A stretch of DNA of 42,999 nucleotides from contig JAJQJM010000016.1 in the NCBI GenBank assembly GCA_021323475.1, positions 1-42,999 on the forward strand, given 5' to 3'. Positions 14,700-39,661 of the stretch are shown here, piece after piece. Numbering within the stretch: position 1 is the stretch's first letter; each line of letters begins with the position of its first letter. The translations under genes and the position numbers were made by a program. The notes beneath the pieces were generated by a model. The model worked only from the letters and a program-made list of their open reading frames with translations. It searched no databases and was not told where the DNA came from. The stretch is from Vampirovibrio sp. GTDB lineage: Bacteria; Cyanobacteriota; Vampirovibrionia; Vampirovibrionales; Vampirovibrionaceae.

Positions 14700-14720
14700 G
14701 CAAGTCCCAAGCGGGTTTAA

Positions 14721-14742
14721 GTCAATTTGTTAACAAATTGAC
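14721..14742. repeat. perfect 22-base palindrome
   Basis: GTCAATTTGTTAACAAATTGAC reads the same on both strands. It lies 21 bases past prfC, has no T-run behind it, and its last bases begin a TTGACA hexamer (14738-14743). It looks more like a dimeric regulator's operator or a cruciform than a terminator. Confidence 0.7.
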
Positions 14743-14803
14743 ACAAACTGTTCCAAGTCTGAAAATGATTGTTTTTATATAGTTGTAAGGACAACGGACA
14801 AAT

Positions 14804-14834
14804 GGCTGGGTTAAAAAAACATAGGCTGGGTTAA
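14804..14834 (+). repeat. direct repeat GGCTGGGTTAA, two copies
   Basis: GGCTGGGTTAA occurs at 14804-14814 and 14824-14834, with a period of 20 bases. It lies in the 344-base non-coding gap between prfC and the membrane-protein gene, downstream of the palindrome. Confidence 0.6.
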
Positions 14835-14873
14835 GAATTCATTAATAGGCTTTAACTTCTTATATTGCGCTTC

Positions 14874-14928
14874 AACGCCGTCTCTTTGGAGTTACCTCCA
14901 ATTTCTTCAAGAGACTCGGCGTTTTTTT
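14874..14928 (+). terminator. strong rho-independent terminator with inner hairpin
   Basis: AACGCCG-T-CTCTT pairs with AAGAG-ACT-CGGCGTT, enclosing a small GGAG/CTCC hairpin, followed by TTTTTTT (14922-14928). It may end prfC readthrough, or a small RNA starting upstream. TATATT at 14861-14866 with TTCATT 17 bases before it is a possible promoter immediately ahead. Confidence 0.75.
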
Positions 14929-14987
14929 ATTTTGTCACATACTCGTTCAGCGTGGCGTTCCAACGAATGCTTTGAGTGATTGAGGTT

Positions 14988-20843: not shown

Positions 20844-22232
20844 ATGAGCAGATATAGTCGTCGACGTCGGCAACGCCAGATTTTTCTGGGAAATTTTTAC
20901 CTGAACCCTAGTGTTCAATACCTGACCACGATTATCAGCGCCATTGCCTTGGCGGGCTTTGTGTTTTCCGGCTTCCTGCTATTCCGGTTCACGGATGAAG
21001 AGGATTTGATCAACCGGGGCAAAATGCAGCTCATGGAAGGCAAGGTGGCTTGGGCGGCTAAAACCTTCCAAACGCTGGTGACCCACCATCGGGACAGCTA
21101 TGAAGGCCACTTGCTGCTGGGTCAGGCGTATCTGCAACTGGATGAGCGCCGCAAGGCCGAGCAGGAATTTGAAATCGCCGCCTCCTTAAAGAGCAAGCGG
21201 GGCGATAACGCGCCGGAAATTGCCATGAGCAAGGTGGCCATGGCGCAACAGGACTTTTCCCGTGCGGAAAAAACGTTGTACACTGCCTGGCGCCGTAACC
21301 GGCAGGATGAAAACGTGAAACAGGCTCTGTTTGAGCTGTATGACCATTGGGGTAACGTGCTGGCAGAAGCCGACCAGAAAGACTACGGCGCCATTGTACA
21401 GAAATATCGTACCGCTTTGCAGTATGCCAGCGATTATCAGGCTCAGCAAAGCGTTGAGGAAAAGCTGATTGACGCGATTCGGGCGTATACCGATAAGCTG
21501 ATCGTGATGAAAGACTATGAGAACGCCATCCATCAGTTGAAAACCTCGCTGCGCTTTAAATATCTGCCGGAAACACTGGTGCAAATCGCGGAAACCTACG
21601 GCCGCATGAACAAGCTGGATGAGTCCATTGATTGGTATCGCAAGGCCTTTGAGGTGAATCCCGATGTGGTGGGCCTGCGCCTGACCAACGTGCTGGTGCA
21701 GAAAGGTCAGCAATTGGTGGCCGCCAAGAAACCGGACGAGGCCAAGCCTTACTTCGAGGAGGCCGACAAGATTAGCCAGGAAGCCAAAGTGCCCTTGGAT
21801 AACCTGTACCCGGTCAGCGTGGCCAGCGTGAAGATTAACAACGATATGGATGACGCCACCGGCGAGTTTGAACCCACCGTAGACATCAAGCTTTCCAACG
21901 ATGCCAGCCGGGATTTGAGCTTCCTGGCGGTGCGGGCGGAATTTTTGTCCGGCAATGAAACCTTGGCCATGACCACGGAGCAGGTGGCGGCCCCGGATAA
22001 GCCGTTTCCAATGAAGGATCCTCGGACCTGGCGCTCGAAAAATACCTTGACCGTCAGTTTGAAGCCGGATGCCAAGTTGAACGTGCATGCCCTGCAAGGC
22101 GGCAAGATGACCGTTAAAATTTCCATCGCCTACCGTGACGGTAATGACGCCGTGTGGAAGCTGAAATCCATTCAGGAGGCTACCATTCAAGGCGGCGCTT
22201 CCCACCCGGTGACTGAGGCGAAGCCGGTATAA
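20844..22232 (+). CDS. membrane-anchored tetratricopeptide repeat protein
   Basis: A 462-residue protein. The N-terminus is very basic (MSRYSRRRRQRQ), followed by one membrane helix (about 28-48, 'TTIISAIALAGFVFSGFLLF'), so the bulk lies on the far side by the positive-inside rule. Residues 55-320 are TPR helices: 'GKVAWAAKTFQTLVTHHRDSYEGHLLLGQAYLQL', 'KDYENAIHQLKTSL', 'NKLDESIDWYRKAFEVNP', 'KKPDEAKPYFEEADK'. Residues 335-450 are beta-rich ('ATGEFEPTVDIKLSNDASRDLSFLAVRAEF', 'MTVKISIAYRDG'), perhaps a protein-binding or adhesion-like fold. TPRs mediate protein contacts; the partner is unknown. The last codons (EAKPV, stop) belong to a short tandem repeat that continues past the stop. Confidence 0.75.
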   Translation: MSRYSRRRRQRQIFLGNFYLNPSVQYLTTIISAIALAGFVFSGFLLFRFTDEEDLINRGKMQLMEGKVAWAAKTFQTLVTHHRDSYEGHLLLGQAYLQLDERRKAEQEFEIAASLKSKRGDNAPEIAMSKVAMAQQDFSRAEKTLYTAWRRNRQDENVKQALFELYDHWGNVLAEADQKDYGAIVQKYRTALQYASDYQAQQSVEEKLIDAIRAYTDKLIVMKDYENAIHQLKTSLRFKYLPETLVQIAETYGRMNKLDESIDWYRKAFEVNPDVVGLRLTNVLVQKGQQLVAAKKPDEAKPYFEEADKISQEAKVPLDNLYPVSVASVKINNDMDDATGEFEPTVDIKLSNDASRDLSFLAVRAEFLSGNETLAMTTEQVAAPDKPFPMKDPRTWRSKNTLTVSLKPDAKLNVHALQGGKMTVKISIAYRDGNDAVWKLKSIQEATIQGGASHPVTEAKPV

Positions 22233-22310
22233 ATCAAGCTAGTGCGAAGCCGGTATAAATCAAACTATGCGCGAAGCCGGGCTAATCAAACGGATGAAAA
22301 GCCGGTTTAA
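22218..22310 (+). repeat. degenerate tandem repeat spanning a stop codon
   Basis: GCGAAGCCGGTATAAATCAA at 22218-22237 recurs exactly at 22244-22263, then as GCGAAGCCGGGCTAATCAA at 22271-22289, and as a fragment GAAAAGCCGGTTTA near 22296. The period is 26-27 bases. The first copy encodes the EAKPV end and stop of the TPR gene; the others are past it. Downstream ACCGGCTTT (about 22374) is the reverse complement of a repeat core, so hairpins can form between the convergent genes. Confidence 0.7.
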
Positions 22311-39576: not shown

Positions 39577-39626
39577 TATAATTTTGTAAAGTAACCTTCT
39601 TGTAGAGTAATCGTTTATAGAGTAAC
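39577..39626 (+). promoter_or_regulatory. promoter with three direct repeats upstream of the XRE gene
   Basis: TATAAT at 39577-39582 (weak -35 CGTTTA, spacer 17) is followed by TAAAGTAAC (39587-39595), TAGAGTAAT (39603-39611) and TAGAGTAAC (39618-39626), spaced 16 and 15 bases, that is, about one and a half helical turns. The position over the transcript start fits an operator for the XRE protein or another regulator. Confidence 0.5.
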
Positions 39627-39661
39627 CGGCCTGCAGGAAAGCAGGGTTTGTGGTTGATTAG

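What the first reader, a model, noticed from the sequence alone, without database searches (positions are those of the whole stretch)
14721..14766. Perfect 22-base palindrome downstream of prfC merging with TTGACA
GTCAATTTGTTAACAAATTGAC is too long to expect by chance and is not followed by a T-run. Its right arm supplies a TTGACA hexamer 17 bases before GAAAAT, so it could be the operator of a promoter reading into the gap.
Basis: seen in the sequence. Interest (0 to 1): 0.5.

Follow-up and report, generated by a model that had tools for sequence, protein, structure and literature searches.

The report
Small-RNA gene with cyanobacterial light-type switch
The palindrome is a chance-level decoration on the switch of a small-RNA gene that exists in several copies in this non-photosynthetic relative of cyanobacteria, and the switch carries the repeats that the cyanobacterial light-stress regulator RpaB binds, so it may show what RpaB does in cells that do not photosynthesise.

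Summary
The 22-bp palindrome is real (14721-14742) and unusual for the window, but about one per genome is expected, and neither its paralogues nor its relatives have it. It sits on something better. Window 14727-14932 is one copy of a multicopy unit in the genus Vampirovibrio, a non-photosynthetic sister group of cyanobacteria. Each unit has direct 8-bp repeats at a 10-bp period (KTTACAWW-like, three units), a block TTGTTTTTATRYA, then an 83-143 nt non-coding RNA with one to three GGCTGG motifs and an intrinsic terminator whose stem covaries. The repeats match HLR1, the binding site of the cyanobacterial response regulator RpaB. The unit positions stand far above background in three family groupings of the order (37 of 52 promoters, 0.3 expected). 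The genome encodes a curated RpaB equivalog with the same recognition-helix sequence. The sites lie where RpaB activates in cyanobacteria. Best reading: an RpaB-controlled small-RNA gene, inserted after prfC in this species only. Transcription, RpaB binding and RNA targets are inferred, not shown. RpaB in these lineages was already published. I found no report of its sites or of these RNAs.

The parts
14721..14742 (.). perfect 22-bp palindrome; right half overlaps repeat units 1 and 2, left half is private to this copy
14730..14737 (+). repeat unit 1, TTAACAAA (7 of 8 to KTTACAWW)
14740..14747 (+). repeat unit 2, GACACAAA (6 of 8); with unit 1 the HLR1-like site, about -58 to -41
14750..14757 (+). 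repeat unit 3, GTTCCAAG (6 of 8), about -38
14769..14781 (+). conserved block TTGTTTTTATATA with the -10 candidate TATATA at 14776-14781
   Evidence: BLAST blocks
14787..14930 (+). predicted small RNA, about 142-144 nt, with two GGCTGGGTTAA motifs; start site inferred
14874..14928 (+). intrinsic terminator: stem 14874-14923, T-run 14922-14928; stem covaries between copies

Best explanation
Window 14730-14930 is a small-RNA gene of a multicopy Vampirovibrio family. Its promoter has three direct 8-bp repeats spaced 10 bp apart, upstream of a conserved TTGTTTTTATRYA block. The response regulator RpaB most likely binds the repeats (an HLR1-type site at about -58 to -41) and activates transcription of an untranslated RNA of about 143 nt that ends at an intrinsic terminator. 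The RNA probably acts by base pairing through its repeated GGCTGG(G/A)TT motifs. Shown: the repeats, their conservation, terminator covariation, RpaB presence, synteny of other copies. Inferred: transcription, RpaB binding, activation rather than repression, and mode of RNA action.
For: Copies in own genome at 81-91% identity and in all four other genus genomes. Promoter found in 15 of 18 order genomes, about 65 hits against 4 for the reversed pattern; with a longer pattern, hits outside the order are at control level. KTTACAWW matches peak at -20, -10 and 0 from GTTCC (5.7, 6.5, 5.9 of 8; background about 3.2), although only GTTCC and the T-block were used to select sites. The upstream peaks hold in the genus, the rest of its family and other families; 37 of 52 have both upstream units against 0.3 expected. 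RpaB equivalog in own genome, 350.5 bits, cut-off 330, and over cut-off in 15 of 18 order genomes. Recognition-helix region DTRVVDVHISRLR identical to photosynthetic cyanobacteria. Exact HLR1 is 103 against 13 in the reversed control over the order. HLR1 at -66 to -45 activates in cyanobacteria (PMC13421787). 23 genus GGCTGG-type copies have an 83-143 nt RNA with terminator, all 7 consensus stem pairs with double changes, three loci with conserved flanking genes.
Against: No expression or binding data. The window's own units are imperfect (7, 6, 6 of 8). Unit 3 lies at about the -35 position, which could also be a sigma-factor element. Other OmpR-family regulators (six in own genome) could bind similar repeats. 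The RNA is not globally more stable than shuffles (z -0.7). The window copy is absent after prfC in G002, G003 and G004, so it could be a silent recent duplicate.
Confidence: 0.68

Rival explanations
1. The small-RNA gene and promoter are real, but another OmpR/PhoB-family regulator (for example the RpaA-like or PhoB-like protein) or an alternative sigma factor reading GTTCC-N14-TTGTTTTTAT controls it, not RpaB.
For: Six OmpR-family regulators in the genome; GTTCC and the T-block are the most constant parts (partly by selection); family-3 genomes have RpaB and many HLR1 sites but few promoters of this type.
Against: The upstream units match the HLR1 consensus and its 10-bp period rather than a PhoB box (PhoB consensus from general knowledge); the RpaB recognition helix is unchanged.
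Confidence: 0.22
2. The palindrome itself is the operator of a dimeric repressor, with TTGACA/GAAAAT as promoter.
For: Perfect 22 bp, 10 of 12 promoter match.
Against: Left half and TTGACA absent from the paralogues and relatives; about one such palindrome per genome by chance.
Confidence: 0.05
3. The unit is a mobile or repetitive element that only carries a promoter and terminator, with no function for the RNA.
For: Near-identical copies in own genome, species-specific insertion after prfC; one conserved locus adjoins a gene resembling a tyrosine recombinase (inspection of translation only).
Against: Three loci keep copies in synteny across species, terminator pairs are kept by compensatory change, no terminal repeats seen by inspection, and the promoter also precedes unrelated small protein genes in other genera.
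Confidence: 0.12

Closest known systems
HLR1 element / RpaB regulon of cyanobacteria (KTTACAWW-N2-KTTACAWW)
   Same: 8-bp direct repeats at 10-bp period, same base preferences, activating distance, cognate RpaB encoded in the genome
   Different: three units, the third GTTCCAA; fused to an order-specific TTGTTTTTATRYA block; non-photosynthetic host; drives small RNAs and small protein genes
PsrR1, RpaB-controlled small RNA of Synechocystis
   Same: small RNA in the RpaB regulon (PMC13421787)
   Different: no Rfam family matched here; PsrR1 targets photosystem transcripts, which these organisms lack; multicopy here
Rfam P8 (RF01682)
   Same: weak match over 14711-14788
   Different: 22.1 bits against gathering 60, E 0.067; treated as chance

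Membership tests
HLR1 element (RpaB site) | two KTTACAWW units separated by 2 bp | tested here: inconclusive
   met by the promoter class (peaks at -20 and -10); window copy 7 and 6 of 8, not exact
HLR1 element (RpaB site) | RpaB encoded in the genome | tested here: met
   NF045944 350.5 bits over cut-off 330
HLR1 element (RpaB site) | position upstream of the start site (-66 to -45) for activation | tested here: inconclusive
   about -58 to -41 from an inferred start site; range from PMC13421787
HLR1 element (RpaB site) | RpaB binds it | not testable with these tools
   needs gel shift or footprint
intrinsically terminated small-RNA gene | terminator with conserved pairing | tested here: met
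intrinsically terminated small-RNA gene | no conserved reading frame | tested here: met
   window ATG at 14802 (10-codon frame) is absent from the other species' copies (by reading the alignment)
intrinsically terminated small-RNA gene | transcript observed | not testable with these tools
   no RNA data
known Rfam family | score over gathering threshold | tested here: not met

The most novel reading that the evidence does not exclude
In the non-photosynthetic Vampirovibrionales, RpaB drives a dedicated regulon of multicopy small RNAs and small proteins through an order-specific promoter, so control of small RNAs may be an old role of RpaB that predates or is independent of photosynthesis.
Probability: 0.35. 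Interest if true: 0.75.

Novelty: new variant of a known kind. Interest (0 to 1): 0.5.

Why it matters
RpaB and its kinase NblS are light-stress regulators, yet non-photosynthetic Melainabacteria keep them, and the authors who reported this could only say they 'may have another function' (PMC3787301; orthologues in all three orders, PMC4040986). This promoter class gives a concrete, testable set of RpaB targets there, and points to an undescribed small-RNA family in a parasite of algae.

Tried and rejected
Palindrome as a genome-wide operator: no second copy. TTGACA/GAAAAT as promoter: not conserved. My first spacer of 13 missed the family, 14 is right. Genome-wide named scan: hits in Mucilaginibacter, Larkinella and others taken as chance because the pattern is otherwise confined to Vampirovibrionales. 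Rfam P8 match rejected. Global RNA stability is not informative.

Full report
Observation. The palindrome is at 14721-14742 and perfect. It is the only perfect palindrome over 14 bp in the window, but about 0.8 of 22 bp are expected in a 3.34-Mb genome and other fetched loci hold several of 22-30 bp. It occurs once in the genome, allowing 3 mismatches.

What is conserved. A BLAST of the spacer finds three further copies in the own genome at 81-91% identity, a more diverged fourth, and copies in the other four genomes of the genus, with the most widely shared block at 14763-14789. A named scan places the group as Vampirovibrio and Vampirovibrionales. Reading the copies side by side shows: direct repeats, GTTCC, 14 bases, TTGTTTTTATRYA, then AAGGACAA..GGCTGG.., TTGCGCTTTAACGCC and a terminator. 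In three G005 copies the same promoter precedes small protein genes.

Promoter. The pattern AMTGTTCC-N14-TTGTTTTTATRYA gives about 65 hits in 15 of 18 order genomes against 4 for the reversed pattern. A longer pattern over 194 genomes of the class is confined to the order, the six single hits outside it being at control level. In 52 sites, 8-bp units like KTTACAWW peak at -20, -10 and 0. The -20 and -10 units were not used to pick the 52 sites out of the loci, and both hold in three family groupings; many of the 52 are related copies, so they are not 52 independent events. This is the HLR1 layout (consensus read in PMC11633204 and PMC13421787). In the window the units are TTAACAAA, GACACAAA and GTTCCAAG. 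The TTGTTTTTAT block was part of the search pattern, so its constancy is partly by selection; one search shows it without that bias.

Regulator. One of six OmpR-family regulators is a curated RpaB equivalog. RpaB is over the cut-off in 15 of 18 order genomes. The DNA-recognition segment is identical to that of photosynthetic cyanobacteria, while the conserved Cys59 is Thr in all order sequences aligned. Exact HLR1 sites are enriched 103 to 13 over the reversed control in the order. RpaB in Melainabacteria is published; I found no paper on its sites or on small RNAs there in the library searched.

RNA. 23 GGCTGG-type copies in five genus genomes give a predicted RNA of 83-143 nt with a terminator, and three more give a CU-rich RNA. 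The stem keeps pairing through changes on both sides at all 7 consensus pairs, on a set that includes paralogues and near-identical copies, so counts are not independent events. No Rfam family matches. The RNA body is not unusually stable, fitting a largely unpaired RNA with a terminator.

History. Three loci keep copies in synteny across the genus: one with tandem arrays of 1 to 4 copies, one with a CU-rich and a GGCTGG RNA side by side in three species, and one with a single copy. In G002, G003 and G004 prfC is followed by the next gene or an unrelated one without this unit, and in G001 by other sequence. The window copy is therefore a species-level addition.

Verdict. The site is a small-RNA gene with an HLR1-like promoter, most likely controlled by RpaB. 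The start site, transcription, binding, direction of control and targets are inferred.

Noticed in passing
L132 and RpaB of 15 other order genomes: The conserved Cys59 of cyanobacterial RpaB is Thr in all Vampirovibrionales RpaB aligned.
   Followed up: partly
L013:3536, L015:3593, L016:4230: CU-rich predicted small RNAs with several CCTCC motifs, resembling anti-Shine-Dalgarno sequence, directly upstream of a GGCTGG RNA, with the same promoter.
   Followed up: partly
L024:3766-5371: Three tandem units, about 710 bp apart, each with the same promoter and leader before a small protein gene; the first two genes are near-identical.
   Followed up: no
L010 end and L011 end: Contigs C118 and C147 end in the same repeat and probably adjoin, giving a tandem RNA pair; an assembly break, not tested further.
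   Followed up: partly
G011, G013, G015, G017: Family-3 genomes have the most exact HLR1 sites (45 against 1 in the control) but hardly any promoters of the TTGTTTTTAT type.
   Followed up: no
window 22218-22291 and 39583-39628: Short tandem repeats of 26 and 15 bases.
   Followed up: no
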